64,000 bases of DNA, taken from Medicago truncatula (taxonomy: Eukaryota > Streptophyta > Magnoliopsida > Fabales > Fabaceae). The position numbers and the translations under genes are program-made. Shown here piece by piece: positions 5,351 through 56,383 of the stretch. The stretch is from positions 32,040,972-32,104,971 of the forward strand of contig NC_053047.1 in NCBI RefSeq assembly GCF_003473485.1. The letters run 5' to 3'. The notes under the pieces were generated by a model. It was not told the DNA's origin, ran no database searches, and was given only the letters and a program-made list of their open reading frames with translations. Each line of letters begins with the position of its first letter. Position 1 is the first letter of the stretch.

Positions 5351-5359
5351 AATCCATCA

Positions 5360-14672: not shown

Positions 14673-14680
14673 CATGCATG
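14673..14680 (+). promoter_or_regulatory. RY-type element CATGCATG in the CXE leader
   Basis: CATGCATG lies 66 bp upstream of the chosen start codon. The word is the core bound by plant B3 seed regulators, but its position suggests transcribed leader, so a regulatory role is only possible. Confidence 0.3.
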
Positions 14681-14745
14681 ATCTATCTTCTACTCAACAA
14701 AGCACAAACACACATATCCTCACTTTCATTAGAGTCATAGCCACC

Positions 14746-15753
14746 ATGGCCTTAGAAACCAAACCACGCCTTCCATGGAAGGTGCGCTTCTCTACTTCCA
14801 TCCTCTCCGCCATTAGCGACATCACCGGTCGTTCCAATGGTACCATTAATCGCCGCCTCCTCAGCTTCATTGACTGGAAAATGCCTCCTAACCCTAATTC
14901 CAAATCCATCAACGGCGTCTCTTCATCTGACGTCGTTGTGGATCCCACATGCAATCTTTGGTTTCGTCTTTTCCTTCCTTCCTCCTCCACCACTGCCACC
15001 ACAAAATCTTTGCCTGTTATCATATTCTTTCATGGTGGTGGCTATGCATATATGTCTCCCTCTTCTATTCCATACCACATGCTTTGTCGCTTATTTTGTC
15101 GTTCTTTTCCTGCCATTGTTGTGTCTGTTAATTATGGTCTTTCCCCCGAACATCGTTTTCCATCCCAATACGAGGATGGTTTGAAAATCCTTAAGTTCCT
15201 TGATCAAAATGTTGATGTTTTAGGAAAATATGCTGACATCAGCAAATGTTTTTTGGCGGGTGATAGTGCGGGTGGAAACTTGGCCCATCATGTGGCTGCT
15301 CGGGTTTCCTTAGAGGATTTTCGGGTTTTGAAGGTTATTGGACTGGTTTCGATCCAACCTTTTTTTGGAGGAGAGGAACGAACTGAGTCTGAGATTCGAT
15401 TGAAACGGGTACCCATCTGTTCGATGGATAAAACCGATTGGTATTGGAAAATGTTTTTGCCGGATGGGTCAAACCGAGACCATGAAGCGTCTAATGTTTG
15501 TGGGCCTAATGCAATGGATATTTCAAATGTGGATTATCCGAATACTCTGGTGTGTGTTGGTGGGTGTGACCCGTTAGTAGATTGGCAAAAGAGGTATTAT
15601 GAGTGGTTGAGAAAATCTGGAAAAGAAGTGCAACTAATAGAATATCCAAACATGGTTCATGCTTTTTTTTACTTTCCAGATTTGCCTGAGACACTTGACC
15701 TTATTTCTAAAGTCAAAGATTTTATGATCAAGCAAATGGTTGCTATGAATTAA
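14746..15753 (+). CDS. Carboxylesterase, CXE18-like alpha/beta hydrolase
   Basis: A 335-residue, single-exon member of the plant carboxylesterase (CXE, GID1-related) family. The oxyanion-hole motif HGGG is at residues 96-99, the nucleophile elbow GDSAGGN has its serine at 174, the likely catalytic aspartate is D275 in GGCDPLVDW, and the histidine is H305 in NMVHAFF. All three triad residues are present, so it should be an active esterase and not a GID1-type receptor, which lacks the histidine. The N-terminus LPWKVRFSTSI plus NRRLLSFID is typical of the CXE18 subgroup. An in-frame ATG at 14674 would add 24 residues; I chose 14746 because it sits in GCCACCATGGC and begins the family-conserved N-terminus. 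There is no signal peptide, so it is probably cytosolic. The substrate is unknown. Dead copies lie at 11317 and 26298. Confidence 0.93.
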   Translation: MALETKPRLPWKVRFSTSILSAISDITGRSNGTINRRLLSFIDWKMPPNPNSKSINGVSSSDVVVDPTCNLWFRLFLPSSSTTATTKSLPVIIFFHGGGYAYMSPSSIPYHMLCRLFCRSFPAIVVSVNYGLSPEHRFPSQYEDGLKILKFLDQNVDVLGKYADISKCFLAGDSAGGNLAHHVAARVSLEDFRVLKVIGLVSIQPFFGGEERTESEIRLKRVPICSMDKTDWYWKMFLPDGSNRDHEASNVCGPNAMDISNVDYPNTLVCVGGCDPLVDWQKRYYEWLRKSGKEVQLIEYPNMVHAFFYFPDLPETLDLISKVKDFMIKQMVAMN

Positions 15754-22955: not shown

Positions 22956-23579
22956 TCAATTTCCCATGGCATCAACAAATACAACTTCATAGGGATCATT
23001 ATTAGCCAGGACCAGAAGTCTTCCAGTAAAGTCATCATGCCTCCCAATATCATAACAAGCACCAGGTGGGGCAGTGATATCTGGACAGAACACAAGCTTG
23101 TATCCAAAACCATGTTTCTGAATTTTAAAGAAACCATTTATGATATGCTTACCTTCATTATCTTCAGTACCACCAATACCAACCCATGGTCCAGTTAATT
23201 TGTTAAAATCATCAACCAACACCCACTTGGAGGATTCAGCACAGTCGGGCTTTGTTGTAAATGCGATATCAAGTGCTGTGTTTGTTGAGATTATATCATG
23301 GCCTGCTTCTAGCCTGGTAAACTTTACAGGCAGACCATTGACAACCTCAGAATAATCTTGAAGTACAGTAAGTGGACATTTTGAGTTTTTTGTCTTACCA
23401 AGCCTCAATCCACCACCAGCTGCTCCAAAGATTGATGGCATAATATAGAATGTGCCACCAGGAAAAATGGGGTTTCCATTTGTGTCAAAAACTTGTTCAG
23501 AAACTTGTGCAAAAGCTAATGAAAAGCAGATGGTTAATGCAAAGAGGATCAAAGAAAGAGTAAGGAATGTAGGCTTCAT
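22956..23579 (-). CDS. Kunitz trypsin inhibitor-type protein (STI family)
   Basis: A 207-residue secreted protein of the soybean trypsin inhibitor (Kunitz, I3) family. Residues 1-24 (MKPTFLTLSLILFALTICFS then LAFA) form a signal peptide. The family signature near the mature N-terminus is VFDTNGNPIFPGGTFYIMP. Four mature cysteines (C68, C113, C165, C175) fit the two conserved disulfides, and length and beta-trefoil spacing are normal. In the loop region (NGLPVKFTRLEAGHD) I do not see the classical Arg-Ile reactive bond, so the target protease, or inhibitory activity itself, is uncertain. An upstream in-frame ATG at 23651 lies 5' of the signal peptide and overlaps the TATA region, so it was not used. 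Such proteins usually act in defence or seed storage, in the vacuole or apoplast. Confidence 0.93.
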   Translation of the reverse strand: MKPTFLTLSLILFALTICFSLAFAQVSEQVFDTNGNPIFPGGTFYIMPSIFGAAGGGLRLGKTKNSKCPLTVLQDYSEVVNGLPVKFTRLEAGHDIISTNTALDIAFTTKPDCAESSKWVLVDDFNKLTGPWVGIGGTEDNEGKHIINGFFKIQKHGFGYKLVFCPDITAPPGACYDIGRHDDFTGRLLVLANNDPYEVVFVDAMGN

Positions 23580-23655
23580 TGTTTTCAATGGATCAATCAA
23601 TGTTTGATATAAATTTGATTGTGTTTGTTTTGCAATTGGTGCATGGCTCAACCCT

Positions 23656-29551: not shown

Positions 29552-29865
29552 AACTGAGTCGAAGATCCGATTCAAATGGGTCCCGGTTGTTTTAATGGAT
29601 AAAACCGATTGGTATTGGAAGATGTTTCTGGATGGATCAAATCGGGACCATGAAGCGGTTAATGTTAATGGGCCTAAGGCATTGGATATTCTGAATGTGG
29701 ATTACCCGAAGAGTCTATTGTTTTTTGGTGGGTTTGATTCATTAGTAAATCTGGAGAGGAAGTGGAATTAATCCAATATTCAAACATGATTCATGGTTTT
29801 TATTATTTTCTAGATTTGTCATAAACTTCTCAGTTTATTTCTAAAGTCAAGGACTTCATAACTAA
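29552..29865 (+). pseudogene. CXE pseudogene 3, 3' part
   Basis: It corresponds to the live protein from about residue 213: MDKTDWYWKMFLDGSNRDHE, then VNGPKALDILNVDYP and GGFDSLVN (the catalytic-aspartate region), then a decayed tail with IHGFYYFLDL where the catalytic histidine should lie. A small deletion after SLVN removes the segment containing RYYEWLRK, and stops follow. The last bases read GACTTCATAACTAA, where the CACTA transposon starts. Confidence 0.88.
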
Positions 29866-29990
29866 CACTACAACAAATAAGATGTAATGCAACGCCACTT
29901 TAAAATGGTTGCCATAAAACCGTTTTCTAATAGGACAACAACAACACAATATTAATGGGTGGTAGTAGTTAAATTCAATAATAATACAAC
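29866..29990. repeat. Left terminal and subterminal region of the CACTA element
   Basis: After the terminal CACTACAACA, the words GCAACGCCAC, AAAACCGTTTTC and ACAACAACAACAC occur. They resemble the ACAACGGTTTT words on the right side and are likely transposase-binding repeats. Confidence 0.6.
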
Positions 29991-30109
29991 AACAGTTATA
30001 ATATTATTAAAACTGTTACGCCTAAAAAAAAAAAAATATTAATACTCTTTAATTATTTTGACTTTTCAGAGAGATAGAATCAGGTTTTTCATTTTACACT
30101 ACCCTCTCT

Positions 30110-30365
30110 CTCAGGACAACAACAACACGCTTCTTACCCACTCACACCAAATCACTTCTCAAAATCACATAATCTCATAATCGCTTCTCTCATAATCACT
30201 TCTCACAATCATTCTTCACTTCTCACAATCTCATCTCAGAATCACTTCTCACTTCTCATAGAATCACTTCTCACAATCGATTACTCACTTCATCTCAGAA
30301 TCACATCTCATAATCGATTCTTCACTTCTCACAATCTCATAATCACTTCTCACTTCTCTTCACGA
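30110..30365 (+). repeat. Degenerate tandem repeat of an AATCACTTCTCAC unit
   Basis: About 250 bp of repeats built from AATCACTTCTCAC, AATCTCATAATC and AATCGATTCTTCAC. It lies just inside the CACTA left end and is probably transcribed leader. Confidence 0.8.
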
Positions 30366-31315
30366 ATTTGCGGTATGTAGTTCCTTTGCGTTTTTATTTT
30401 GCTCTAATTTGATATTTCTAGGTTAAGTTGATACTGATTTGATGCAATTGACATTTTTTAGGTTAAGATGATTCTGATTTGATTTTAAGTTGATTCTACT
30501 TGTATTTTGTGGATTAGTAGAAAATGATATGAAATCGAACGAGACTTGTAATAATTCTGAACTGATTTCATGTTGTTTTTGTTTGTTTTGTTGGTTTATT
30601 TGCGCTTATGGAATCTCACGCGCTTCTGATTTCACCGCTCATCAGATCTGCTTCATCGCAATCACTCTTACATCTTCATCAGAATCGCTCTTCATCACAA
30701 TCGCTGATTTGATGAGGTAATGTGATGTTTAAGTTCAGCTGATTAGATACTTAATAGAAAATGAGAATAAGAATTTTGATGTTTTAGTTTGGTTTGTTAA
30801 TCTGAAATAAAAATGAGAATAAGCTAATTTGTAGCTTAATCTAAATGAGTTATTTGAAATGAGAATCACTTTATTTTTTGTTGACATGTGAATTAATAGA
30901 ATATGATATGAAATAAGAATAAGAACTGTGATGTTTAACTTTTGTTGGTTAATTTGGAATGAAAATGAGAATAAGATATGAAATAACAATAAGAATTCTG
31001 ATTTTAAGTTTTGCTAAATTAGATTAGATTTTTGGACTAATTTCAATTATTTTTTTCCGTATTTGTTGTTGGTTAATTTGTGGATGATTTATCTGCCGAT
31101 TCTTCGATGAGCATTTGAGTTGACTTTCTGTATCTCTCGAATCAGGTTTGTGCACTCTATTGTCGTTTATTAAGTATCCCATGTTGCTGGATTTTGATTA
31201 GTTTGGTTACCATAAAAATGTTGTTGAATGTTTTTATTTGATTGGATTTGTTCATGTTTATTAATCTGATTTGATATTTTTGTTGACATTAGAATTAGTA
31301 GAAAATGATATGAAA
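30366..31315. repeat. CACTA 5' region with diverged internal repeats
   Basis: Phrases such as GTAGAAAATGATATGAAAT and GAGAATAAGAATTTTGATG recur several times. The block ATGATTTATCTGCCGATTCT...GTATCCCATGTTGCTG at about 31086-31190 is duplicated at 39320-39430, beyond the Helitron. There is no convincing coding frame. Confidence 0.55.
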
Positions 31316-34300
31316 TCTACTAACTACTCTAGAAAAAAAAAGTTCCCATTTTTTTTCATTTTTGCCCTTAAAGGGTATTGAGGTCATTTCCAATTTAGTG
31401 AGGATGTCTGTTGACAGATCATCACTCCTTCCACTATATATATGGAGTTAAGCATTCAATTTCTCAGTCCCTCTCATTTCTATACTTTCTGTACGGTTAC
31501 TATATTTCTCGTCGCTCTCTCCGGTACGTTCATTTCTCAGGTTCGGTTCCGTTTTTTTTTATCACCATCATCATCATCGCTTTTTTCCTTTCCTTTTTCG
31601 GCTTGCATGACTGTTTTTGTTGTCTCTATGGTTTCAGTTGTGTTGTTTTTGTTGTTGTTTTACCTCTTTTATTCATGTTGGTTGATTCAGTGTTTGTTTG
31701 GTCTGTATGTTGTGTTTGTTTTGATTGATTGAGAGATTTTAGGTTAATTTTGGTCTGAGTTGTTCCTATTTTTGTGCATGCATGTTCCTTCTTTCTGTTG
31801 TTTTTGGTGTTTCTTTGCCTCTTTTATTCACGTAGCTTGGTTGATTGAGAATTTGCTTGGTTTGTATGTTGTGTCTGTTTTAATGAATTGAGAGATTTTG
31901 CTTCAATTTTGGTTTGGTTTTTTGAATTTCTATTTTTCTGTGTTTTTTTTTCTGTTTAGAGGTTGGTAATTGGCTTTGTTCAGATTATTACGTTTATTTT
32001 TTGTATTTTTTTACATGCATGCATGTTGATTTTGTTGGGTTGGTGTGTTGTTATTTGTTTTGTTTGATAGTGTTTTTGAAAAAATCATATGTTTAGTTTG
32101 ATCATAGTATGCATATGATGATAGAAATTGGGCAAAGTTGTTAAAAATTCTGGTATTGTTATTGAAGACTATTGGTGTTTATACCATTTTTTTTGGCAAA
32201 TTTGGTTGTATGCTGAGGTTGTTGGATACATTGAGTACTCTTGCTTTCTTATCATGTTTCAAAGAATCATGAGACAGAAATTTTTTGCAGTGACTGAGAA
32301 AATATGTTTGTTCTTTCTTGAGAGTAACAAAGGAAAATACTTTTAAGACACATTTTTTGGTAACAAAGAAAATTTAAGTATGTTTTGATGATGTTTACTA
32401 AAACAAAGATGATGATGTTGGCAATGTTATAAAAAAAATCTACATTAAGGATATTTGAGCTATTACAGTGAGGTATTTCAGTGTTTTCATGATGAATTGT
32501 TTTTTTTTTTTTTACAGGGTTCTCAATAATGTCTAGGGATTTTGGTTGTATCAAAGATTTGAAAAAGGATCTAGATGTTTGGAAAATTGCATTTAGAGTT
32601 CTTGACTTATGGATTGTCACTGCCAGTAATGGTAATCAACACTTGGAGCTAATCATCGAAGATGCCAAGGTTAGGAAAATTACCTTCGCTTCTTGTGAGG
32701 GTTGTGTTGGCTTTTGAATTTGTTTGGTTATTCTACCAAAAAACTATTTTATGCATAGCTTCAGTACTCTTTTTCAGAATTTAGTCATGCATAGTGAGTG
32801 AACATTAACACAAGAGTATATAATAGTATAATTTTGGTTGAATTTAGCATAAATGAACTAAGTCTTCAAGGAAGAACATCTAGGAAGTGTTAATTTTGGA
32901 ATAGTGAAAGGTCCGTAGTCTCTCTCAAATCCACAATATATAGTATCTTATTGTCAAATGAGGTTGAATAATCTATCAAATTATAGTGATTGATTGATTA
33001 AAATGGATAAGAGTTGAAATATGTAATAAATTGATTTCATCAATAATGACTTTGGACAAATGGATCATTCTTAGGTGCACGATGAGTTGTTTTTGTTGAT
33101 TGGTGTTATGAATTTCGATTTACATGCCTATTTTGCTTTTGTTTTTGGATTTAGGGTGATAGGGTTCATGTTGTAACTCGGTATCAAGACCTTGAGCGTT
33201 GGAAGCGAGTGATTGAGGATGGCAAGACCTATGTTTTGCATAATTGTCTTGTGTTCGATAATGATGATGCGTTCAAGCATGTTGACCATCCTTAGATGGT
33301 GTTTGGTAGCGGAACAAAGGTGGTTAGGAATGACAAGCTGACTAACATTCCTTGGCATGAATTCAGATTTAAGTCCTTTAAGGAGATCCAAGACGGGAAT
33401 TTCAAACCAGATGTTTTGTATGGTATAGTTATGATTCCTTATGTTTTAAATTTGTTTGTTCTTTTTTTTAACTATAAGGGTGTTGATGATGGTGGTAATG
33501 TTTTTTAAGAAATCATTGGGCTTATTGACGAGATTGTGAAGACATCGGTGTTTGGATCTGGAAAAAAGTCGTGCACCAATCTCGTGCTTCAAGATGAAGT
33601 GTATGATTTTATGATTTTTAAACGTTAGATTGTATTAAAAAAAAATTAGTTGATATGTATCTGAGGATGTTGTTGACAATGCAGGGGAAATTTGGTTGAT
33701 GCAACATTATGGAACAAATATTCTGTTGATTTAATGAAGTTTCTTTCTGAACGGAGGGATAACGGACCTGTTGTCTTGATATTAACTCATGCTTAGTGCA
33801 AAATTGCAGGTTAATATATCATGTGTTGCATGTATTATTTTGTTAATTCTTTTTGTCGTTTGTCGCTCTGTTTTTGTTGATTTTTTCGTTCTTATTTTTC
33901 AGATAACGGTAAGTCGAATGTGTGCAATAACTGGTCTGGCTCAAGGTTGTTAATCAAATTCAAACATCCAGTTGTTGAGAGATTTAGGAGCAGGTTAGTT
34001 TGCGTTGTGCTTTGAATGTTAATTTTTGGGATGGTGATACAAAAATAGAGTTCCTTGATTATAAATATTCATCAATGTGTATATAGGTGGATACATTAGA
34101 GGTAAATAAATGTATCTCATATGTATATAATGCATAAACATATCGATATGATCGTTTGAAATCAGGGAATGTCACGTTAAATAAATGTTTTGATTTTGCA
34201 GTCTTCATGCTCAAGGTCGTGGCCTTGGTCGGACTCTTTGTGAAGGTTCGAATTCTTCTCAGAGATCACAGAATAATGAATTTTCAAATCTTTCTCAAGT

Positions 34301-35204
34301 GAGAGCAATTGGTGAATTTAGGAATTTGATTCAGGTTTGTTTTGTTTACACATGGGGATATTTTTAGATATTTTGTTAGTGATCTATTTGTTTTTTAACT
34401 GAGTTGTATAATTTATTTTAGAACACCTATTGCATCACTGTTGGCACAACAAGCAAGTTTAATCCTAATCGATTTGGCTGGTACTATGAAAGCTGCACCA
34501 AATGCCCAAAAGCTTCAAGGTCAGGTGGTGCTAGCTATAAGTGTTCATGTGGAGAGGATGTCGAAGATCCGTTGACAAGGTTGTGTAGCTAAACTTTTAT
34601 GTGATTCACTTATAATTTTGGTTTTAGCATATGCTTTCTTATTATTAAAAGTTTGTTATATCATAAAATGTATCTTTTTTATCAGGTATAAGGTGGTTGT
34701 TCAAGTTGTATATGAGGGTGATAAGTCGGAGTTTGTGTTCTGGGATAAGGAATGTGTTCAGATTCTTGGTGTCACTGCAGATACTCTTAGAAAAACCATA
34801 CAGGAGGTAAATTTGATTGTAAAATTTAGTTTTGGTTCTACTTTAATTATTTACTAATTTTATTTTTTGGAAATCTGACTTTTATAGTTATGTTTGTTCA
34901 TGAAGGTTGATGAGGATGATCCCATGATATATCCCACGCATTTAGATAAATTGCTTGGACTTGAGTTGGCATTACGTGTGAAATACCAGGCGTATTATCA
35001 TCAATCATCTGTGCAAGGTTTTTCCTCTGATGCTGCTGTTATTGAGAGAATTAAGCGTCATCTTCGTCCTGATGGAATGCAGTCAGATGTGCAAGAAGTT
35101 GATGAGGTTTTGTTGCGTTTGTTTGTTGATTCATTTTATTTACAATTAATTTGTTTATTTATTTAATTTTGACTTATGTTTGGTTATTCTCATCATTACT
35201 ATAG

Positions 35205-37530
35205 ACTGTTGTCAACAATGATCCAACTCAGTTATTTGAACTTCGAAGTACAAGTTCTTCTGTTGAATGCTCAAAAGTCATTCCAACTCATGTGGTAGGT
35301 TTACACTATTTCTTCAAATGATTTATATCAATGTATAGGATAGTGGAGAAAACTATTTATAGTGATAACTTGAGTCTTAATTTTTTTCCTGATCATTGTT
35401 TTAAGGGTTAATAGGTCTTTACCCCCCTGTAATATAGGACACTTTTGGTTTTGCCCCCTGTAAAAAAAAAAATTTAGATTCCGTCCTTGTAAAATGAAGA
35501 TTCTTCAAGATTGCCCCCTGAGCCCTGTGACTCAGCAGAATCTATGATGTGACATTTTTTTTTATTTTTCAATTTTTTTTTGGAAGCCAAGTGTAAAAAA
35601 TAATTTACATGTCATTTATAATTAAAAAAAATAAAAAAATCTATTTTTTTTAAAAAACGAAAAATATTTTAAAAATTAGAAAAAAAATTCAGATATTTTT
35701 AAAAAAATTTAGAAATGCAGATTTTTTTTAAAAAATTAAGTTCCGGATTTTTGTTAAAATCAGAAAAAACATTCAGATTTTTTTAATTTAATTTTTAAAA
35801 TAAAAAAAATATTTTATATTTCAAAATCTTTATTCCAGAAATTTTATAAATTCTTTTTTGAAATTAAATAATTAGAAAAAAATTCAAATAGTTTTTACAG
35901 ATTAAAAAAAAATAGATAATTCTTTTTTTTCGAATTTTATAATTTTAATTTAATTCGGATTTTTTTTGAAATTTAGTATAATTTTTTTGGAAAATTTGGA
36001 AATATATTAAGTTCGAGAATGGAAATGGTATACCATAAAAGCATTTTTTATTTAAAAAAATAAAAATAAAATAATTTTTTTTTCTGAAATTAGGAAGTAT
36101 TTTTAAAAAAAAAACTGGATTTTATCAAAAATTTCAAAAACAAATCAGAATTTTTTTCTAAATTTAAAATTTTCAAAAATATCTGAAGTTAAGATTTTAA
36201 AAATTTAAATAAAATCAATTTTTTTTTTCAGATTAAATAGTTGGAATTTAAAAACATTTATATCCAAATTTTTAAAAATTAAAATATTTTCCAGAGTTTT
36301 CATTCTTTGTAGAAAAAATTAAAAAAACTTTTTTATTTCGAAAAAAATCTGAATGTTTTTTAATTTCGAAAAAGATAAGACAATTTTCTATTTCGGAAAA
36401 AATCTAAATGTTTTTTAATTTTTGGAAAAAAAATCTAATTTTTTTTCGATTTAAAAAAATAGTTTGAATTTTTTCAGATTTTTTAAAATATGATTTTCGT
36501 TTTTTTAAATTTTATTTTATATTTTAATTTTTTTAAATAAAAATGACGTGTAAACTATTTTTTACACGTGGCAAGCTAAAAAAAATAAAAAAGAAAAAGA
36601 AAAAGCCATGTAGGTGCCACATCATAGATTCTGCTGAGTCACAGGGCTCAGGGGGCAATCTTGAAGAATCTTCATTTTACAAGGACAGAATCTAAAAATA
36701 AATTTTTACAGGGGGCAAAACCAAAAGTGCCCTATATTACAGAGGGGTAAAGACCTATTAACCCTTGTTTTAATTTTGATTGTGTTGCGGTAGAACATTG
36801 TCGGCAATAATCCAACACAATCAGTGAAAGTTGAGCAGAAGACCTCTTATGGTAAAGGCTTGAAATCAGTTCCAGTTTCTATGGTATGTCTGTCTGTACT
36901 TTCATATTCTGATCATCTAATCCATTATGTTATTTGCCTATTATTTGAAAATATGGTTAATCTGTTTTTGAATCCTTAACTATACCTTAAAGGGTTGACA
37001 TTGATATCAAACCATTTTGGTGTTTTGATCATTATGAAATATCATAGAAAGAGGAATTGAGATGTAATTCTCATTTTATACAAAGTTATAAAACTATTGA
37101 AGTATTGTAACTCATGTAAAACTAATAACTAGGGAAGAACTAACAGACTTCTCTACTATAAATGAGATAAATTAGCATCTTTATTAGGTAATAAGAGTTA
37201 AAAAATGGAGTAATAACGGTGACTTAGGTTGGATTTTTACCTCTTGGAAGATACCGACAAATTAACAACTAATATTTTGTTATTATTCAATAATTAAAGT
37301 AATTGATGAGGCTATGACATGTTCCTTTAGTAGACTAATTTTAGATCACTAACTTCATTCATGCATGGTTTAATTTCTGCATGTTTTTTATCATATATTT
37401 TGTTCTAAATACTGTTTCTTTTTCTATGTTCTTGCGATAAAGCATTGTTTCTGATGATCCAACTCTGTCCGTGAAAGTTGAGGACATGACCTCTTCTGCT
37501 GAGGGCGTGAAATCAATTCCCATTTCTATG
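35205..37530 (+). repeat. Three homologous 90-bp exons near the end of the RPA-like gene
   Basis: The exons 35205-35294, 36794-36883 and 37443-37530 encode related peptides (TVVNNDPTQLFELRS, NIVGNNPTQSVKVEQ, IVSDDPTLSVKVED) and each ends ...P(T/V/I)(H/S)(V/M) before a GTAGGT or GTATGT donor. The third is 2 bp shorter at its acceptor side. This is exon duplication. Confidence 0.75.
35405..36764. mobile_element. 1.36-kb MULE-type foldback element in an RPA intron
   Basis: Long terminal inverted repeats (GGGTTAATAGGTCTTTACCC at the left, its mirror at the right; both arms contain CAAGATTGCCCCCTGAGCCC and GTGACTCAGCAGAATC) enclose very AT-rich DNA. Perfect 9-bp duplications TTGTTTTAA lie at 35396-35404 and 36765-36773, as in Mutator elements. 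It has no coding capacity. Confidence 0.9.
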
Positions 37531-39224
37531 GTATGTCAACGTTATTCTCTCAAATGATTTTTATCTGTCTATAAAAAAGTAGAGGTATGTATGTGTGCAA
37601 TATCTAAGTAAAAATAAAATGAGGTCTGTTAATGAGAGTAATATTATGATAAGTATTGAAATAAAGATTCATTGTTGATTTGGTTGACAATGAATTTTTT
37701 AATGTTTTTTATACAAACTAATTAGCTCTTTTTAACTTTTGTATCAGCAAAAGTCTGTTTCTGTGTGCAATCAAGGTGGTTTAAATCAAATTGGGAACTG
37801 CACTCCTTCAAAGCGTTCGTTTGATGAAAAATGTAAAGGCGGAGTTGTATCTGATGGCTGTGATCCAACATCATTATCTTCCATTAAGCAGGCTAAATGT
37901 ATTAGGAAGAAGTAATCAGTTCCATCTTTGTTTAGCTTTTTGAGGAAATGCCGTTCTAATGTGCGAAGTTATTTGATCTATGCTCTATAATAGTGGTTTT
38001 AAGCTACGTGGAATGGCTTTGGATTATGCAACATATGTGGCTTATTTTGGTTAATTGTAATATATTAAGTCTAACAATGTAACTTGCCACAATTAACTTT
38101 ATGTAATTAAATAAGTTGCATGTAATTAACATAATATGTTTCTACATTTTGCTATGCCTATAACCAAGTAACTATATCTAATATTGAACTCTTTAGATAT
38201 CAGGCTAAAACTATTGAGGTTTTGCAAATATAAAATACAAGATTTGGGTTCTTAATTTTTCTTGCGAGAAAGTTAGGTAGGGTGAAGGATATGTTAAAAA
38301 AATTTGGTCAAAAAATGGTTTTAAACTGTTGTTAAACTAAGATAAATGGTAAATGGTTTTCTCTATCAAAAAATTAATTATTGATAAATGCTTTTAAACT
38401 GTTGCTAAACTAAGACTGAGCACAGTACCATCTCTTGACTGCATAAGTTCTCTTTGTGCAAGATAGAGTGTACACTACATTTTATATTGTAACTTCTCAC
38501 CCTTGTGTTCCTTTGAGTCCATTTTCCTTCTACTTTTTTTGCCTACATTCAAAAAATTTGGAAGCAATGCAAACAATATCAGTGGTGTTTAACATCTCTT
38601 AATTAATTATGTCGTTTTAACATCTCTTCTTTTGAATTTGAAGATTTTGTTACAATAATTATTATCCATTCTTTTACAATTTAAAAGGTTATCAGTTATA
38701 GTTCATACACAAGACTTTTACTGATGTAGTTTCTGGTTAGCAGTTTCTTCTTGTGCTTGATGTAATTCATGCTAATGAGATTGCCTAAGCAAAGATTTAC
38801 AACCTTTGAAGTTTAAGTTCTAAAAATGTTTATTTTGTATGATATCACTAAAGTAACTTCTATCCTTCATTCTACATGGTGTAAATATAGATATCACCAC
38901 CTTTATAGTAACCACGTAACAGTATCACTCCCTTTTACAATTTTAGTTCGCATGCAATCGTAATTTGCACATCATTGGTTCCTTTATTCGTTCATGTTTT
39001 TAATTTCCTAAATATTAAGTTACTTTACCATAGTATGGAGTAATTATATATTTACCATGAACCCTTCATTGTGATGTGTTAATCACAAATCATGCTTATT
39101 TAAGTTCATATATTAAGATCTTACGATGAACCATGATATTCCGTCGTTTTAACATTTATCCTATCAATGTAATATTTTATCAAACGTGTTATTGAACCCG
39201 TGCAAAGCACAGGTTTGTAACTAG

Positions 39225-40604
39225 TAATAATATGAATTGTGATGTTTAAGTTTTGCTGAATGAGAATAAGAATGTGAATTTTGAACTAATTTCAAGTTTT
39301 TTTTGTTGGTTTATTTGTGGATGATTTATCTACCGATTCTTCACTGAGCATTTGCGTTCACTTTCCGTATCTCTCGCGATCCAGGTTTGTTCACTTTGCC
39401 GTGTTTATTAAGTATCCCATGTTGCTGCATTTTAATTTGATTGGTTACCATAAAATTGTTGTTGAATATTTTAATTTGATTGAATCCGTTCACGTGTATC
39501 GATTGTGGTACTGAACTACGGAATATATATCTCTGATCTTAGTATAGCTCTTCATTAGTTTAAACCAAAAATTCACTATAGACCATTTTTTGTAAGTTAT
39601 TTTTTCATGAGGAATGACAGAAGTAAAACATGACCAATTCCACTCTAAAGGTCATAATGCAATTGTGCTATTAACAAACTTGTGTCCAACTGGAATAGTT
39701 TCATAGTTTGAATGCGATCTTTAGTTATATGTCTTGTGGGATGTTCTGATAAATATTTGATAGAGCATAGAAATTCCTTTTAAGTTTGATATAGGCTTTA
39801 GATTATCTCCTATTACTTAGGTGGCTGATTCTCATTTTATATTTTACATTATGATTAAGTATCAAGATAAAGGAAAAAAAAATAAAGGATCAATTGTTTT
39901 CTTATGGTTTATGTTTGATTGATTAATTTGTTGTGCTATCTGATATACATATGCCCTCACCTGTGAAGAGTTTTTAGTTTTTTATGTATCCATGACACTT
40001 TATTCTGAAAAAAGGAATTTGATGCATGTATTGTTAAAAGCTAAGAAGCTGCATGCATTCTTGTTTACTAGTTTTCCAGAAGAAAGGAAAAGGAAAGAAT
40101 ATTCTATTTAACTAAACATGGGTGATATAAGATGCAAATCTTCTTTACTATATACTTGGTACATTCATTTTATTTTTAAGAGAAGATGGCCGAATTCGAT
40201 ATATAACATCATGGTTTATGTTTCCTGTTTTGTCAATAAGTTGTAATAATTTGTAATGGGGGTATGCCAAAATGGCTTGGTAGATTTTTTGAAAACTATC
40301 ATAGCCAATTTTTTAATGGATGCCCTCCGCCATGGCGGCACCACCACTGTTGTGCTGATATGGTTTTATGCTTTTTTTGGCCATAGCCAAATTTCTTTTT
40401 GTCTTCCACCATAGACAACATTGATTCTATGCTTTTTAAATGGTTTTACCTTAGTAGAACAGTTTTAGGCATGTCTTTTGATCAAAGAACTCATATTCAT
40501 CTCCTCCATAGTTAATGCACAAAGTTGGCACATCAATTCTTCCATATGTTACTTGTTTCTCTGATCATAGAGAAGTTTTGTTAAAATCATTTGTTTTCTT
40601 TTAG
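39225..40604. other. CACTA sequence downstream of the Helitron
   Basis: This begins with a repeat of the pre-Helitron CACTA sequence (ATTTATCTACCGATTCTTC at about 39323 against 31088). The rest is AT-rich, intron-like, ending in a TTTCTTTTAG splice acceptor at 40604. No coding sequence is recognised. Confidence 0.5.
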
Positions 40605-40688
40605 GCGCTTAACTGTTGCTCAGCTGACCGATTGCAACAAATGCGAATTACCCCAAGGACTGCTTTGTGGAGATTGCCTCTACACAAG
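40605..40688 (+). pseudogene. Captured exon of a CDCA7-like zinc-finger gene
   Basis: An 84-bp exon bounded by TTTTAG and GTAACA splice signals encodes RLTVAQLTDCNKCELPQG then LLCGDCLYTR. The paired CxxC motifs with QG..CGDCLY.R resemble the 4CXXC/R1 zinc finger of plant CDCA7-type proteins, where RYGE follows. Only this piece is visible. It is probably a host-gene fragment picked up by the CACTA element. The family match is from memory and moderate. Confidence 0.5.
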
Positions 40689-41370
40689 GTAACATTGTTT
40701 TAGTTGAGATTCACATTGAGAAAAGGACTTATTTTTTGTTCAAAACTTGAAAAATAAAGCAATGCTCGTTTTGTGGTAGGTTCTTATGGTAAAATATTTT
40801 CTCAAAGTAGATCTTCATTGTAGTAGCTTTTGATTAGTTTGGCATTAAGAATCCAAAGTGTTTGTTCAGTGGGCCAATATATGTATGTTTGTGCTTCTTT
40901 AATGCTCATATTGTTAGAATCATCATCATTTGACTAATTGTTATGTGCGTGTCTTTGCGTTTAGTGAAATCAATGTTACTAATTTTATTATTTAATTGGC
41001 TCTCTGAACTCATTAATCACCATAAATTTATACTTTAAGTTGTACTAATTTTTCTTCATTTATTTTTATACTTGTCACAGTTGAAGACGACATAGCTGTA
41101 AGGAAGACCTGCATCCTCATTTTATACACCAACAACAAACACTCTACGGTATGGTTTCTTTCTTTCCTTGTATTTTATCTTCAACAGAACCCTAGAGTAG
41201 TTTTCTCATTGTAACTTTTTGTTTTCTTTTTACTTGTTAGATGATTAGATATGACACAGAGATGATGATAGTTAGATATTCTTTCTTCTTTCTTCCTTTT
41301 ACTTGTTAGATAATTAGATATGGCATAAAGATGATGATGATTAGATATCACTTCTTTTTTAGTAAACTCA

Positions 41371-43389
41371 ATGGACAAAGAATGGATGAGATTTCCAAGA
41401 GAAAGCCCAGAGTACATGAAGGGCGTATTCTTTTTTCTTAATTATGCTTATAACAAAGGAAAACCTGAAGGACTGGAGATTTTGTGCCCTTGCGCTCAAT
41501 GCCACAATGCTTCTTGGAAAACAGGAGCAGTCGTATTTGATCATTTAATAGGAAATGGATTTGAGAAAGGCTACGATGTTTGGGATCGCTATGGTGAGGG
41601 GTTAAATCCCATGGATATCGATGGTGATACAGATTCTGAAGAGGATGAACTAGATAACATTGATGAACTATTGAATGACAGATTTAGAGATGTGATACAA
41701 GAGGAGTGTGGAGTTAACAATGGTCTTAGTGATGATGCTAAAAAGTTTTATAATCTGATTGAAGAAGCGAGCCAAGAGTTGTACCCAGGATGCAAAAATT
41801 TCTCTACATTATCTTTCACTATTCGTCTGTACTTGTTAAACTGTCTTCATGGTTGGAGCAATGCATCCTTTACTTCTCTATTAGAGTTGTTGAAAGAAGC
41901 TATGCCTTTATTAAATGTTCCTGATTCATATAATAAAACTAGAGGAATGATAAGAGATTTGAGACTTGATTATAATAAGATTGACGCATGTCCTAATGAC
42001 TGTATGCTATATTAGAAAGATCATAATAATGACATATCATGCCATGTTTGTGGTGCTTCACGGTGGATTGAAAGTACTACAGAAAGTGGTCAGACTGAGG
42101 AAAACAAGAAAGAACACAAAGTCTCTGCAAAAATATTAAGACATTTTCCTTTGATTCCTAGACTGCAAAGGTTGTTTATGTGTTCAGAGACAACCACTTC
42201 ATTAAGGTGGCATCATGATGATCGTTCCAAAGATGGGAAATTAAGGCATCCTGCTGATGGTCAAGCATGGAAAGAATTCAATGGTCATCATCCTGAATTT
42301 GCTCGTGATTCACGTAACATACGACTTGGATTGGCTAGTGATGGATTCAATCCATTTAGAGCAATGAATTTGAAATATAGTGCATGGCCTGTTATACTGA
42401 TTCCTTATAATTTCCCACCATGGTTGTGTATGAAGGCTGAGTATTCTATGTTATCTTTACTAATACATGGGCGAGATTCACTTGGAAATAACATTGATGT
42501 GTACCTCCAACCATTAATTGAAGAGTTAAAGGTACTGTGGAATTTAGGTGTAGAGACATATGATGCTTCAACATATCAAACTTTTCAAATGCGAGCAGCT
42601 CTCTAATGGCCTATTAGTGACTTTCCTGGGTATGCTATGTTGAGTGGATGGAGTACGAAAGGATATATGGCTTGCCCTTACTGTAATTATAACACTAACT
42701 CTATCTATTTGAGCCATAGTCGAAAGGTGTGTTATATGGATCATCGTGTTTTCTTATCTATGAATCATAAATATAGATCAAATTCAAGGGATTTGAAGGA
42801 TCTTGATATCTTAGAATCAGAGATTGCAGAAACTCTTTGCCAACTAGAGACAATTTTTCCTCCGAGTTTCTTTGATATAATGGTTCATTTTCCTATACAT
42901 CTTGTGATGCAAGAAGGAAAACACGAAATAGTGGCGTTACATTGGTGTCGATGACCCAAAGCTTTGCAAGCACGAAAGATGAAAATCCGATAACAAAACC
43001 ATTAACTTATTATGGATCGATTATAGATATAATTGAGGTAGATTGTTGTGGAAAGTTGGTGTTATTTAGATGTGATTGGTATGAAGTTGAAGACAAAAAA
43101 AAAGTATGGGACGACTTGTGTCCAATTTAATAAAAGATGTTATAAAGATGATCCTTTTGTGTTGGCCTCTCAAGTCCACCAATGCTTCTACGTTCAAGAT
43201 CCCTACAATGAAAATAGGAATTATGTTATGAGTATTGTTCCTAGAGACTTCTTTAATATGAAAAAAGGGTCAAATTCAAATGCCCAAGAACCTTATCAAA
43301 GTCAACCATTAGATCATGTTATAAATTTAACCATAGCTGATGAAAATGGTGAAGTTGAATTGTCCAGAGATAATATGCCTAAAAGCTAA
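41371..43389 (+). pseudogene. TNP2-type CACTA transposase, broken
   Basis: The frame opens MDKEWMRFPRESPEYMKGV with the Transpos_assoc domain, including CPCAQCHN. The TNP2 core follows (RLQRLFMCSETTTSLRWHHD, LASDGFNPFRAMN, WPVILIPYNFPPWLCMK, MLSGWSTKGYMACPYCN), then a DUF4218 scrap (LETIFPPSFFDIMVHFPIHL) and DUF4216 (YYGSIIDIIEVD, FYVQDPYNENRNYVM). In-frame stops are at 42013-42015 (TAG where WKDH is usual) and 42604-42606 (TAA), with a TGA at 42952-42954. A frameshift sits in the poly-A run near 43094-43104. A large internal deletion lies between NSRDLKD and LDILESEIAE. The protein would cut and join the element's ends, but this copy cannot be active. Confidence 0.9.
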
Positions 43390-43478
43390 TTAAATCAAAA
43401 TTCAAAAAGCTAATTATACTCTTGATACTGACTTGAACTAAATATTTATTTGTTTCATGTGTCTAAAAGCCAAACTAG

Positions 43479-44787
43479 TGGACAGCTCTATGATGAATGG
43501 ATTAAGCAACAAAGTTTCTGCTCAAATCAAAAAGGGCCTTGTTAATCACAGACCACCCAAGAAGCAAAAGAATACTCTGAAGCGTAAGTAGTACATCAAA
43601 TGCAATTTATGGGTATGTTTGGTTTGCAAAACAGCAAGTACTGGACAGAACAGTACAAGATAAAAGAGTACAACACAAGGCAGAACAGCACAGGACAAAT
43701 TTTTTATGACATTGAGTAATTTTTTGTTTTATACGATTTTTGAGGGACAAAATGCTATTTTGGTATTTTAGACAACTTGTACGTGGGACAAAAAGTTGTG
43801 ATGTGGTTTGGTGAGGGACAAAAATATGAGTTTTTGTTGTGTCCCTTGCCTCCAGTTTGTCCTGTACCTGAAACAGTTTTACAAATCAAACACTGGACAA
43901 CTAGAGTTGTTCTGTCATGATGTAGTTTTTTTTACCTGTCTTTTATTTGGATGATGTGAGTACTTTATTAACTAGTGGACGGCTCTATGATGAATGGATT
44001 AAGGAACAAAGTTTCTGCTCAACACAAAACAGACCTTGTTAATCACAGACCATCCAAGAAGCATAAGATTACTCCAAAGTGTAAGTGCTACATCAAATGC
44101 ACATGCTATGGAAACTAACAAAACATGTGACCATTGTTTTCCTTAATTTCTCACATTTAGTTTTGTCGAATTCTATGTAAAGTGACAATGTCATGATGCA
44201 GTTTTTTGTTTTTACTTGTATTGTACTTGACTGATGTGAGTAGTTTATTAACTAGTGGACGACTCTATGATGAATGGATTAAGCAACAAAGTTTATGCTC
44301 AAATCAAAAAGGAACTTGTTGATCATGGACCATCCAAGAAGCAAAAGAATACTCCAAAGTGTAAGTGCTACATCAAATGCACATGCTATGGAAACTAACA
44401 AAACATGTGACCATTGTTTTCCTTATTTTCTCACATTTAGTTTTGTCGAATTCTATTTAAAGTGACAATGTCATAATGCAGTTTTTTGTTTTTACTTGTA
44501 TTGTACTTGACTGATGTGAGTATTTTATTAACTAGTGGACAAATCTATGTTCAACGGATTAAGCAACAACTTTTCTGCTCAAGTCCAAAAGGACCTTGGT
44601 GATGATGCACCATCGAAAAGGCAAAAGAGTACTCCAAAGATTCCTTCAATGTCACTTGATGAGTACTTTAAAAGGAGTAGGGAGCAACTTGAAGCAGAGG
44701 AGTCTGAAAATGAAGAACTTGACAGGGAACAAGAAGTTAAGGGTGAGATAAACTATGAAAATGGTGATGGTGATAATTCAATGGAAG
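43479..44787 (+). repeat. Array of four homologous exons; 280-bp period
   Basis: The exons 43479-43583, 43976-44080 and 44256-44360 are each 105 bp, and the fourth (44536-44787) extends the same unit. Starts 2, 3 and 4 are exactly 280 bp apart. Each opens after an ACTAG acceptor and encodes VD.SM.NGL.NK..AQ.K..L followed by PSKKQK-type basic residues. Splicing all four in frame would give a repeated basic peptide. The first intron is disturbed by a hAT-like MITE (43611-43919). Confidence 0.88.
43611..43919. mobile_element. Truncated hAT-like MITE in the exon array
   Basis: It matches 4312-4654 closely (GTTTGGTTTGCAAAACAGCA, ACAACTTGTACGTGGGAC) but stops at TTCTGTCATGA, before the right terminal repeat. 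The intron it sits in also contains TGTCATGATG, so the right junction shows microhomology. Confidence 0.8.
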
Positions 44788-45139
44788 GTAACACCCCTAC
44801 TAGTTTGGCTTTCCACTGGTTCTCTTATATATGTGTGTATATATGTATAACTGGTGTGATATTGGAATGTTAACTAGGAGAAGCATCAAAATAAAATAAA
44901 AAAAGAGGAAGCACATTGTGCTTAAAAATTCATGCTCGGTCACTAGTTGATAGACAAGAAATCACCTTAAATGAAGAAGGAGAGGCCATTGGACCAAGTC
45001 AAAAGATAGTTTCTAAATTCAGCAATTTTTTGGGATCAGTAGCAAGAATGTCAGTTTATATCCTCTTACTTACACAAACTGGAAGGCTATACCAAAGAAG
45101 AAGAAGACTATATGGGCCTATGTCAATGTATCAACTCTT

Positions 45140-45185
<46 letters not shown>

Positions 45186-46110
45186 AGTACATTGTTCCTT
45201 CACTTAATCCTTAATCCAATATATTTATCTGTATATGTTCCTTTTCTTTGCAGAAAATATACATTGTTCCAGAAAAAGGACAGAAGGATGTCTATGCTAT
45301 TATAAATGATGCTTGGAGGCGGTATAAATGGTTGATTAAGAAAAATCATTTTACTAAGTATAGAAACTTGCGTGAGCGGCTGAAAAACCGTCCAGACAGC
45401 ATACCTGAAGCACACTTTAAGAAATTAATGAAGCTATTCTAGTAAGATTAATTTAATTTTAATTGTTTATTATTCTACATTATTATTTTCATATTTGATC
45501 AATTTAGTTCGTCATATGAATACAGGAAATCAGTCATCAAATGCTAAGAATATAGATAAACAAAAATGGAGACATCGAGCAGGTCCCATAAGCTTTGCTG
45601 TCATAAGGGAAAGATTGGTATATAACTTTTACTACTGTTAGCGAATAATTAAATTCTTCAATTAGTGATAATTTTTCTACTATTAGAGAATAATTTTTTT
45701 CTTTGGATAGCGTGCAACCAAGGATGATAGAGAGCCTCAAACTCAAGCTGAAGTTTTTATTGAAACACGACAAAGCAAGAGAGGAAAGCAGCTGGACCAA
45801 GTTACAAGTGATGCAATCGTAAGTTTTTTCTTTATGATTTTACCAAGTTAGTTATTGGCAAAAACTGGAATAAAAATTATCATGAATTTATCCTCAAAAA
45901 TGACTTTACGTAGTCAACTAATGTTGTTTTTGATTTTGCAAGACAAATCTTCAAGATTTGATCACCAATTCTAGTCATTCTTCGGTTGAAGCTTTTCAAA
46001 CTGTCTTTGGAAAAGAAAAACCAGGGAGATTGCGCTGCTATGGAAGAGTTACAACATCTTCTCTATTGAAAAGAAATAAAGTGGCAGATATGGAAAAAAA
46101 AGCATAGTTC
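44536..46110 (+). CDS. CACTA accessory transposase (Ptta/En-Spm, Transposase_24-like)
   Basis: A spliced gene continuing from the exon array. Exon 44536-44787 carries PSMSLDEYFKRSREQLEAEE and an acidic stretch. Later exons hold VDRQEITLNEEGEAIGPSQK (about 44950-45010), KIYIVPEKGQKDVYAIINDA (from 45254), NAKNIDKQKWRHRAGPISFA plus VIRERL (about 45545-45616), and ATKDDREPQTQAEVFIETRQ plus SKRGKQLDQVTSDAI (45711-45818). Next is NLQDLITNSSHSSVEAF, up to a poly-A run near 46091 where the frame is lost. The HR.G..F..IR...REP....F..TR pattern is that of Transposase_24 (PF03004), the second protein of plant CACTA elements. Exon joints are inferred from splice sites. It may be damaged at the 3' end. 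Confidence 0.72.
45143..45182. repeat. (GT)20 microsatellite
   Basis: Forty uninterrupted bases of GT, in a putative intron of the accessory transposase gene. Confidence 0.95.
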
Positions 46111-46525
46111 TTCTAAGAGTCATGCTGAACCAAAGCAACACAGGCATAGATATGGGGGATTTAGGAGCTTTTTTATCAACCCGAAATGATGACAATAATG
46201 TTCGACATTCATCTACATCTAATCATGAGGTATGTTTTCGGTATATTGAAGTGTCGGCTAATTGTTGCAATAGAGATAAACATCAGTTGGAGTAATCAAT
46301 CTATAAATTATCATTTTCATATTATATGTAGACTTAATGAGGTAGGCCACTTCAGATTATCATTTTATTATTAAGTTCTTGAAGTTGGGTGTCAATCACT
46401 TGATAAAATAACTGAACTCCAAAGTGAAAAATAGAAGTAGAAAAAGTTGATTGTTTTAAGCTTTATTTCTCTTTTTTCACTAACCACTGGATGCTTCGAT
46501 TTCTTTGATTCTGGATCAGTCAGTC

Positions 46526-47475
46526 ATGAAGCTCACAGTGAAGACTCTGAAAGGAAGCCATTTCGAAATCAGAGTTCATCCTTCTGATTATGTATGTTGT
46601 ACTTCTTTTTTCTCTATTTTTTTCCTTTCCAATTCTATTAAAATTCGTTGATTGAAGAATTCTCAATATTCATTCAATTTTGTTAGATAATCGCTGTAAA
46701 AACGAATATTGAAGACATTCAAGGAAAAGATAATTACCCATGCAGACAACAATTGCTAATTCACAATGGAAAAGTTTTGAAAGATGAAACTACTTTAGCT
46801 GATAATGAAGTCTCTGAAGATGGCTTTCTTGTTGTCATACTCAGTAAGGTATTGATCTCAAATGTTTCAAGTTAGAATATAATATGTCAAGGATGATGGA
46901 ACCTTCGTTGCTAGAAACTATCAGAATAGTTCTCATGTGATACATGATCTCACCTCGAATAGTAGAAGGACGAACAAACAGAGACAAATCTGAATATGAA
47001 ACATAAGCATTTAAATTAATATAATATGAGACCCTTTTTTTGGTTTGCTGTCAATTGTCTAGCTCTAGTCCTGATTTGTCCTCGGTTGTGTGATGGTTTC
47101 TGTTTTGCCCCTTAAGCTAGTATTTGTTGTTCCTATTTTATCTGTTTTGGACTGATTTTCTTTTGGTCTTGTTCCGGTGTTGTTTAATGATTCTTTGCAG
47201 TAGTAAAAATAAGATAGTTGGTATGGTTGATGTGGTTTTGCGGATAAGGGGATTAGTCTTTTTTGAATGAACTATCTGCCACATTGCAACATTGTGAGTA
47301 TAATAGTGAATTAATTTTTATTTTTATCTTGTAGGTAAATAATAGATCTATGGGTGGTGAATGTTTTGTTGATAACTACGAAGAAGAGGATGAAGAACAC
47401 TTCTTTGATGAATCAGACGAAGAGGATGAAGAAAAATTCTTTGATGACTTGGACGGAGATGAGGATGAAGAATAA
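46526..47475 (+). CDS. Captured RAD23-type ubiquitin-like domain with acidic tail
   Basis: Three exons. Exon 46526-46591 reads [20 protein letters not shown]. Exon 46687-46848 carries [36 protein letters not shown] and [12 protein letters not shown]. Exon 47335-47475 encodes a short acidic tail with two EDEE.FFD repeats. The first two exons match the N-terminal ubiquitin-like domain of plant RAD23, which docks on the proteasome and is not itself conjugated. RAD23's UBA and XPC-binding domains are missing and the tail is not RAD23-like. It lies inside the CACTA ends, after the accessory transposase, so it is a captured module, possibly expressed alone or as a fusion. The splice sites look intact and no stop interrupts the frame. 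Confidence 0.8.
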
Positions 47476-47511
47476 TTTGACTCATTAATTCTTGTTTATT
47501 TTCATTATTTG

Positions 47512-47672
47512 ATGTAATAAATTTCACATTGAAGACTAAATTGTCGATATTCATGACAAAATTGATTAAATTTGGTTGGACATTTATTTTAATGTAATAA
47601 ATCTCACATTGAAGGCTAAATTGTTGATATCCATTACAAAATGATTGACTTTGAATAGGCATTTATTTTGAT
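47512..47672. repeat. Two-unit 80-bp tandem repeat
   Basis: ATGTAATAAATTTCACATTG at 47512 recurs at 47592 as ATGTAATAAATCTCACATTG. Both are followed by AAG(A/G)CTAAATTGT and a TGATT...GG(A/C)ATTTATTTT stretch. It lies just 3' of the RAD23-like module. Confidence 0.8.
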
Positions 47673-47849
47673 TCATACTAGATTATCATATATAATCAAG
47701 TTCTCTAGAATTTAATGTTTGATGTCACCATTTAAGCTCATAAAAAGTTGACATGTGCACTGTTCACATTTTAAAACTTAAATGGTTGATCAATGAATAA
47801 GTAGGTTTGAGATATAATAATGAAAAATTATGTTTTTTTTTTCTCTAAA

Positions 47850-48074
47850 ATCAGTGACAACGGTTTTTGTTGTTCTAAACTCATTTTTTAAGTAATTATA
47901 GACAACGGTTTTTATCTGTTGCGTTTTCCTGTATGCAACAAATCCGTTGTCAAATGAAAAGACAACGCCTTAGACTATAACGGAAAGAAAAGCATTGTCG
48001 AAAGGTAAAACAACGGTTTTATCAACTATGGCTACGATTTTCAGCCGTAGTTTTAAACCAAAAATGTTGTAGTG
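47850..48074. repeat. Right subterminal repeats of the CACTA element
   Basis: Repeated words GACAACGGTTTTTGTTG, GACAACGGTTTTTATC, CAACAAATCCGTTGTC and AAACAACGGTTTTATC lie within 225 bp of the right end. Arrays of short subterminal motifs are binding sites for CACTA transposases. Confidence 0.75.
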
Positions 48075-55275: not shown

Positions 55276-56383
55276 TCAACAAATTGAAGCCAAACTTTCA
55301 ACGTAATCCTTGAAGAATTTCCATGGTATTTCATTACCACTAGCCTGCTCTACTCTATTATCTTTCAAATGATAGAGAATTGCTTTGTGATATTGAGAAA
55401 TCAGTATTAGTATGTCACCATTCTCAGAAAGACACAATGGGAACATAAACGATTGATAACGATTCCAGTCACTAAACCTATCATCTACTTGAACATTCTC
55501 AAAACTGATTTTGATGAATTGAGTCCAAGATTGTTCGACTCCAAATTCCGACATCTGCCATATAACAAAATGAGTTCTCTTGATATAGTGAGAAAAACAA
55601 AGGCAGTCCATCAACACAGCAATAGTCGGTTCAATATCTGGCACTTCATCAACACCCCGAGGGGTCTGAAATTGCTTGTATGTCTCAGTACCAAGATCAA
55701 GGGAGATAATCATGAATTGCTCAACGGTAATATCCTTATTATAAGAATTATAAATGGCCTTATTTCGAATGGCAAACCAATTAACTGTGCCACTCAAATA
55801 CACTCCTTCATTGTTACTAAAGGTAAGAGGAATGGCATGGTCAAAAGGAGGAAACCTTGAAATTTTTCTCCAAATATTATCCTTCAAACTGAAAACTTTC
55901 AGTTTACTATAACATATGAACACCACCTTATAAGTTCCAGTTGAATTATCATACCCAAATGTGAAGCTACGACTGCAATATGAACCGTTGCGAGGCTCTT
56001 TAAAAGATCCTAATTTTTCAGATATTATACCAGTGGCTGGATTCCATATACGAAACCAACTACTTTCAGAGTCTACTCCAAGCAAACAGACCAATCCATG
56101 TTCGATTACTGGTTCGTACATTATAATGTACTACTCCATGTTCGATTACTGGTTCGTTTACTACTATGTGCCTCTTTCTTGAGAATCGATGAAGGTGTAG
56201 TTTGACGAATATGGGATCGGAGATGAGATTTATCCATGACTTGCTCACCAACTTCAATCGCAGAAGAGATTTCACCGGAAGGAATGATAGGACTTCTGCG
56301 ATGAGTTCATCGGGGAGGTATACACGCCGCGACATGGCTTGAGTGACAATGGATTTCGACGACTTGGCTTTAGGGGGATTCAT
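55276..56383 (-). pseudogene. F-box/FBA-domain gene with a 40-bp frameshifting duplication
   Basis: The start at 56383 begins MNPPKAKSSKSIVTQAMSRR. The F-box at residues about 22-66 reads YLPDELIAEVLSFLPVKSLL then RLKLVSKSW. The C-terminal part (GLVCLLGVDSES, FRIWNPATG, FTFGYDNSTGTYKVVF, YLSGTVNWFAIRN, IISLDLGTETYKQF) is an F-box-associated domain of the SCF ubiquitin-ligase adaptor family. The two parts are in different frames. The 22-bp word ACGAACCAGTAATCGAACAT plus GG occurs twice, 40 bp apart (56096-56117 and 56136-56157), shifting the frame by one. Without one 40-bp unit the frame runs straight from VVNEPVIEHG into LVCLLGV. As read, it would yield only a short F-box protein. Confidence 0.88.

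What the first reader, a model, noticed from the sequence alone, without database searches (positions are those of the whole stretch)
46526..47475. RAD23 ubiquitin-like domain captured by a CACTA transposon, with a new acidic tail
Two exons match the RAD23 proteasome-docking domain; the remaining RAD23 domains are replaced by an acidic tail with two EDEE.FFD repeats. The frame and splice sites look intact although the neighbouring transposase is broken. A transposon-borne proteasome-binding module could be selected, for example to stabilise or recruit transposition proteins, or may simply be a transduplicate.
Basis: partly seen in the sequence, partly recalled or inferred. Interest (0 to 1): 0.8.

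Follow-up and report, generated by a model that had tools for sequence, protein, structure and literature searches.

The report
RAD23 domain spliced into a transposase
A jumping gene in a plant genome picked up the proteasome-docking piece of the host RAD23 gene and carries it inside its own DNA-binding protein gene; several copies carry it, and there is no clear sign that it still works.

Summary
Exons 46520-46591, 46687-46848 and 47335-47475 form an open frame with proper splice sites: RAD23 UBL plus acidic tail, inside a CACTA element (29866-48074, TAA target duplication) whose tnp2 gene is broken. The donor is a RAD23 gene in the same genome (C2:51.70 Mb; UBL protein 76 of 76 identical to RAD23 P0163). 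The captured piece is genomic: end of 5'UTR, exon 1, intron 1, exon 2, start of intron 2. The tail is not new: UBL-less relatives (C4:9.24 Mb and five more distant loci) have an acidic last exon after an intron at the same place, so the RAD23 exons entered the last intron of the element's own tnpA-like gene. An annotated M. truncatula protein (A2Q1T1, 674 aa) is the fusion: Transposase_24, coiled coil, UBL, acidic tail. Seven copies found here carry the module or part of it; five of seven have a lesion in it. A 95-aa Logan protein equals one copy's exons 2 and 3 joined. Selection is not demonstrated: UBL stem 3 synonymous to 3 replacement changes, terminal branches 1 to 25, tnpA stem 2 to 7. 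A new variant of transduplication; the proteasome role is untested.

The parts
29866..48074 (+). CACTA element carrying the module: 5' CACTACAAC.., 3' ..GTTGTAGTG, flanked by TAA on both sides
   Evidence: copy L011 has the same ends with ATA/ATA
31317..39224 (.). Helitron-like insertion nested in the element (TC...CTAG, GTGC..GCAC hairpin near its 3' end, read by eye)
   Evidence: read; L011 aligns 31316 directly to 39225, i.e. holds the empty site
41371..42951 (+). tnp2 (TnpD-like) gene, cut by in-frame stops: Transpos_assoc, Transposase_21, part of DUF4218
44547..46231 (+). tnpA-like gene before the UBL (start approximate), several exons, broken by frameshift, stop and deletion; last exon ends ..SNHE|GTATGT
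   Evidence: Transposase_24 scored on the annotated sister protein P0159, not on the window exons
46500..46875 (+). segment of host RAD23 genomic DNA, ends approximate: end of 5'UTR, exon 1, intron 1, exon 2, start of intron 2
   Evidence: BLAST match 46516-46853; alignment by eye suggests a little further on both sides
46520..46591 (+). UBL exon 1 as joined to tnpA: Ser-Val from the RAD23 5'UTR, then residues Met1-Tyr22
   Evidence: same junction in gene models P0122 and P0159
46687..46848 (+). UBL exon 2 (RAD23 residues 23-76)
47335..47475 (+). last exon: acidic tail [16 protein letters not shown] and stop, the transposon's own C-terminal exon

Best explanation
A genomic fragment of the host RAD23 gene (exons 1 and 2 with intron 1, joined in phase 0 on both sides) was inserted into the last intron of the tnpA-like gene of a CACTA family: exon shuffling. 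The family then encoded a TnpA-like coiled-coil protein with a RAD23 UBL between the coil and its older acidic tail, and spread to at least seven copies, deletion derivatives included. While active, the protein could have docked to the 26S proteasome through the UBL (Rpn1 or Rpn10), bringing proteasomes to element DNA or changing TnpA turnover. Shown: donor, inserted segment, older tail, copies, annotated fusion protein. Inferred: that the fusion was made in cells, that it bound proteasomes, that this mattered. The window copy is a broken element and most copies have lesions. The confidence is for this origin and structure; for the function see the rivals.
For: Donor RAD23 at C2:51.70 Mb: UBL 76 of 76 identical to P0163, later RAD23 exons follow; the window's 46000-48074 matches the donor stretch only at 46516-46853. 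UBL-less relative L018..NNHE|GTATGT..TTGTAG|GTAAACC, acidic last exon. Distant relatives L039-L043: 5 of 5 have the exon MNNDDINEEFEDLEAQDEEI after an intron at the same place and no UBL hit in the stretches fetched. P0159 = PF03004 + PF00240 + tail in one annotated protein. Seven copies. P0002 (Logan) equals L010 exon 2 + exon 3 in 95 of 95 residues although reading on from exon 2 meets a stop after 7 residues. Counterparts of ubiquitin L8 and I44 (L8, I47) are unchanged in the window (patch recalled).
Against: No reads seen that join tnpA to the UBL; the junction rests on splice sites and gene models. Five of seven copies have a lesion in the module; L011, source of the annotated fusion, has lost the GT of the exon 2 donor site. 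The counterpart of ubiquitin V70 (residue 73) is changed Met to Ile in the window. No clear purifying selection. AlphaFold gave low confidence for the UBL in P0159. In L043 the intron donor is GG.
Confidence: 0.85

Rival explanations
1. On function, passenger: a transduplicated gene fragment that landed in an intron and was carried along because it lies near the 3' terminus, which deletion derivatives must keep; never of use to the element.
For: Terminal branches of the UBL: 1 synonymous, 25 replacement or stop (counted by eye). L010, L011 and L012 lost tnpA or tnp2 or most of both but kept the 3' end that holds the module. The tnpA stem is also 2 synonymous to 7 replacement.
Against: In frame at both junctions; stem of the five young copies has 3 synonymous and 3 replacement changes.
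Confidence: 0.6
2. On function, selected while active: the UBL gave the element an advantage (proteasome recruitment or TnpA dosage control), lost when the family died.
For: Stem against all terminals: Fisher p 0.015. Stem substitutions K28T, G42R, K63E lie off the ubiquitin-type patch (alignment, patch recalled). P0002 suggests that one copy is transcribed and spliced.
Against: Young copies alone p 0.083; six stem changes only; tnpA, which should be constrained in an active element, shows no such signal.
Confidence: 0.25
3. One reading: a free-standing gene, UBL with a new acidic tail, starting at the RAD23 Met.
For: The window frame has its own ATG at 46526 and the tnpA part upstream is broken here, so a short product is what the window copy could still make.
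Against: Tail is older than the UBL in tnpA; sister copies are annotated as fusions.
Confidence: 0.1

Closest known systems
CACTA (En/Spm) elements, e.g. soybean Tgmt* (PMC2613891, passages read)
   Same: Terminal inverted repeats, tnp2 domain (PF02992) and Transposase_24 domain (PF03004)
   Different: Host RAD23 UBL inside the tnpA-like product; no such domain in the passages read
Ulp1-bearing MULEs (KI-MULE/KIU; PMC13317346, passages) and grapevine Cactavine families with ULP domains (PMC2528002, passages)
   Same: Transposons with a captured domain of the ubiquitin-like world, kept in several copies
   Different: There a ULP protease domain, in the MULE case old and conserved in eudicots; here a proteasome-docking UBL, named hits only from M. 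truncatula, placed in tnpA by insertion into an intron
Soybean CACTA with captured gene fragments spliced into new exon combinations (PMC1947982, title and start of abstract)
   Same: CACTA with captured host exons that are spliced
   Different: Here the captured exons join the transposon's own protein gene
RAD23 ubiquitin receptors (PMC6357184, passages)
   Same: UBL sequence and intron 1 place
   Different: No UBA1, XPC-binding or UBA2 domain

Membership tests
CACTA (En/Spm) superfamily | terminal inverted repeats beginning CACTA/CACTG | tested here: met
CACTA (En/Spm) superfamily | 3-bp target site duplication | tested here: met
   TAA/TAA in the window, ATA/ATA in L011; L010 does not match (AGT/TAC); L012 GTC/GTT; other copies not resolved
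CACTA (En/Spm) superfamily | tnp2 transposase domain (PF02992) | tested here: met
   E 1.4e-61, frame broken
CACTA (En/Spm) superfamily | TnpA binding to subterminal repeats | not testable with these tools
   similar subterminal motifs seen by eye only
Plant transposase Ptta/En/Spm (PF03004) | Transposase_24 domain | tested here: met
   P0159 E 7.9e-28; window tnpA pieces identical to P0159 in 340 of 352 aligned residues, not scanned themselves
RAD23 ubiquitin receptors | N-terminal UBL | tested here: met
RAD23 ubiquitin receptors | UBA1, XPC-binding and UBA2 domains | tested here: not met
   none listed for the 122 aa at E up to 1
Pack-CACTA (non-autonomous, host gene instead of transposase) | no transposase genes | tested here: not met
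   tnp2 and tnpA remnants present
Proteasome-docking UBL | binds Rpn1/Rpn10 | not testable with these tools
   sequence patch only; residue 73 changed in the window

The most novel reading that the evidence does not exclude
A plant CACTA family evolved a TnpA that recruits the host 26S proteasome, or couples its own dosage to it, through a RAD23 UBL taken by exon shuffling, helping it mobilise or escape silencing, in parallel with the Ulp1-bearing VANC proteins of MULEs.
Probability: 0.12. Interest if true: 0.78.

Novelty: new variant of a known kind. Interest (0 to 1): 0.5.

Why it matters
Gene capture by plant transposons is known, and pseudogenes or loss are its commonest fate according to a review (PMC13317346, passages). 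Here the donor, relatives without the domain but with the same intron, and copies with it lie in one genome, so domain gain by a transposase gene through insertion into an intron can be followed base by base. If the UBL worked, it would be another route by which plant transposons took over ubiquitin-type modules.

Tried and rejected
Rejected: tail derived from RAD23 or new (the donor's intron 2 and exon 3 differ; UBL-less relatives have an acidic exon there). Retro-copy of RAD23 mRNA: rejected, intron 1 is kept. Host locus C4:50.445 Mb as donor: rejected, a 44-bp match and a broken frame. Intact frame as proof of selection: rejected.

Led nowhere: viral-contig scan with P0159 (12 pattern matches, 0 confirmed). 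Structure of P0159 with an 18-row alignment: mean pLDDT 51.6, long helix 458-515 confident from about 461, UBL region block means 36-62, tail low; it fits the order coil, UBL, tail but does not test the fold. A count of elements by their 3' end could not be made: the request did not complete. Paper searches turned up no report of this fusion in what I saw of their listings; the library holds open-licence papers only.

Counts: UBL changes were polarised by eye from the table; sites 14 and 73 recur in two copies and were counted twice; the L012 exon 1 stub was dropped. The script set ambiguous rows aside and gave UBL stem 3 synonymous and 2 replacement, young terminals 1 and 9, old terminals 0 and 11. 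Three synonymous differences (codons 4, 32, 61) separate the donor from the element copies and cannot be assigned to a side; no replacement does. With them added the Fisher value is 0.0003, which I do not use because part lies on the donor's branch. Tail: stem 0 and 1, young terminals 2 and 5, old 0 and 5.

Full report
Observation. The frame described is there. Joining 46526-46591, 46687-46848 and 47335-47475 across GT-AG introns gives 122 aa without a stop. Pfam scores PF00240 at 1.1e-13; the best listed hits without transposon parts are plant RAD23 proteins. The element around it is a CACTA: ends CACTACAAC/GTTGTAGTG at 29866 and 48074 with TAA on both sides, a tnp2 gene cut by in-frame stops, and a Helitron-like insertion 31317-39224, for which sister copy L011 holds the uninterrupted site.

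The unit is larger than reported. The last exon of the tnpA-like part ends ..SNHE|GTATGT at 46231, and an acceptor GGATCAG|TCAGTCATG at 46519 puts the UBL in frame with it. An annotated Medicago truncatula protein, P0159 (A2Q1T1, called 'Ubiquitin', 674 aa), runs Transposase_24, coiled coil, SV-UBL, tail. Gene models P0122 and P0123 show the same join, P0001 a join straight to exon 2. In the window the tnpA part itself is broken.

Genome. The window lies in a genome of 429.9 Mb in 42 contigs, which fits M. truncatula A17 (size recalled; exon 2 and tail of L011 occur in P0159, those of L012 in P0001, the tail of L015 in P0123, all M. truncatula proteins). The 950-bp module gave 17 rows, which fall into seven copies including the window (C6:32.09, C8:23.27, C1:0.58, C7:11.74, C7:14.00, C6:21.49, C2:38.24 Mb; 11 rows), a RAD23 gene (C2:51.70, 1 row), the tail of the UBL-less relative (C4:9.25, 2 rows), a short RAD23-like remnant (C4:50.45, 1 row) and two intron-only matches (C4:6.63, C4:27.22). 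The tool calls such counts lower bounds.

Donor. L021 (C2:51.70 Mb) encodes RAD23 through its last exon; its UBL protein equals P0163 in 76 of 76 residues. DNA similarity to window 46000-48074 is confined to 46516-46853 by BLAST, with a further short stretch on each side by eye. Intron 1 is shared, so the capture was of genomic DNA. The Ser-Val before Met comes from the RAD23 5'UTR: RAD23 models of Trifolium (P0161) and Clitoria (P0160) that run into the 5'UTR read QSVMKL and ESVMKL.

Tail. L018 carries a tnpA-like gene, 67% identical over 132 residues of its C-terminal part, with no UBL; after ..LNNHE|GTATGT its intron ends TTGTAG|GTAAACC and the last exon reads VNHGLEEQLSDDFEDDDEEQPFDDLE... 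In more distant relatives L039-L043 (5 of 5) an intron at the same place is followed by MNNDDINEEFEDLEAQDEEI; in L043 its donor is GG instead of GT. A sixth, L044, has the donor site but the exon pattern was not found. Of the 11 sequences searched the UBL hits only L009 and L011, the two known carriers put in. Hence the acidic exon is older than the UBL, and RAD23 exons entered the last intron.

Copies. L009 keeps tnp2 and tnpA sequence; L011 (8.6 kb, ATA/ATA) lacks tnp2; L010 lacks tnpA and its flanks do not form a duplication; L012 is about 2.5 kb. These four keep UBL sequence and tail, which may only reflect nearness to the 3' end. Lesions in the module: L009 tail frameshift, L011 exon 2 donor site GT to AT, L012 exon 1 deletion, L013 stop, L015 exon 2 lost; the window and L010 have none. 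P0002, a Logan protein of 95 aa on a 1,112-base contig that I did not see, equals L010 exon 2 + exon 3; in the genome 477 bases with early stops separate them, so the contig is probably a transcript.

Selection. Donor against copies, dN/dS: L010 0.12, L011 0.13, window 0.24, L009 0.27, L012 0.28 (exon 2 only), L013 0.77, L015 0.98 (exon 1 only); these include the donor's own branch. Between young copies there are 0-1 synonymous and 2-7 replacement differences. Polarised with L013, L015 and the donor, the stem of the young group has 3 synonymous and 3 replacement changes; terminal branches 1 and 25 (Fisher 0.015, young only 0.083). Seven tnpA exon pieces give stem 2 and 7, young terminals 10 and 23. 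So constraint on the UBL while the family was active is possible, not shown.

Function. RAD23 UBL binds Rpn1 or Rpn10 (PMC6357184, passages). TnpA of Spm binds subterminal repeats and is needed for transposition (PMC2613891, passages). A TnpA with a UBL could bring proteasomes to element ends or alter its own turnover. This is inference. The counterparts of ubiquitin L8 and I44 are kept in the window, that of V70 is Ile instead of RAD23's Met (alignment, patch recalled). Passenger status is the likelier state of the domain in present copies.

Noticed in passing
window 31317-39224: Nested Helitron-like element with a sharp empty site in L011; it holds a 35404-36768 insert with inverted ends (by eye) that has relatives in L012.
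   Followed up: partly
window 43429-44640: 280-base tandem units, each with an exon-like stretch MNGLSNKV..; P0159 has about five such repeats at its N-terminus, so the tnpA-like gene may have grown by tandem exon duplication.
   Followed up: no
window 46892-47182: Two pieces of intron 2 match C4:27.22 Mb (78%) and C4:6.63 Mb (86%); origin unknown.
   Followed up: no
L017, about 5315-5389: Degenerate RAD23 exon 2 remnant at C4:50.445 Mb with a stop.
   Followed up: no
window 14674-15753, 29700-29865: Carboxylesterase-like gene and, just before the CACTA 5' end, a remnant that looks like the 3' end of a second copy (by eye, family name recalled).
   Followed up: no
window 22956-23651 and 55276-56121, minus strand: ORFs that look like a Kunitz-type inhibitor and an F-box-associated protein (names recalled, not searched).
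   Followed up: no
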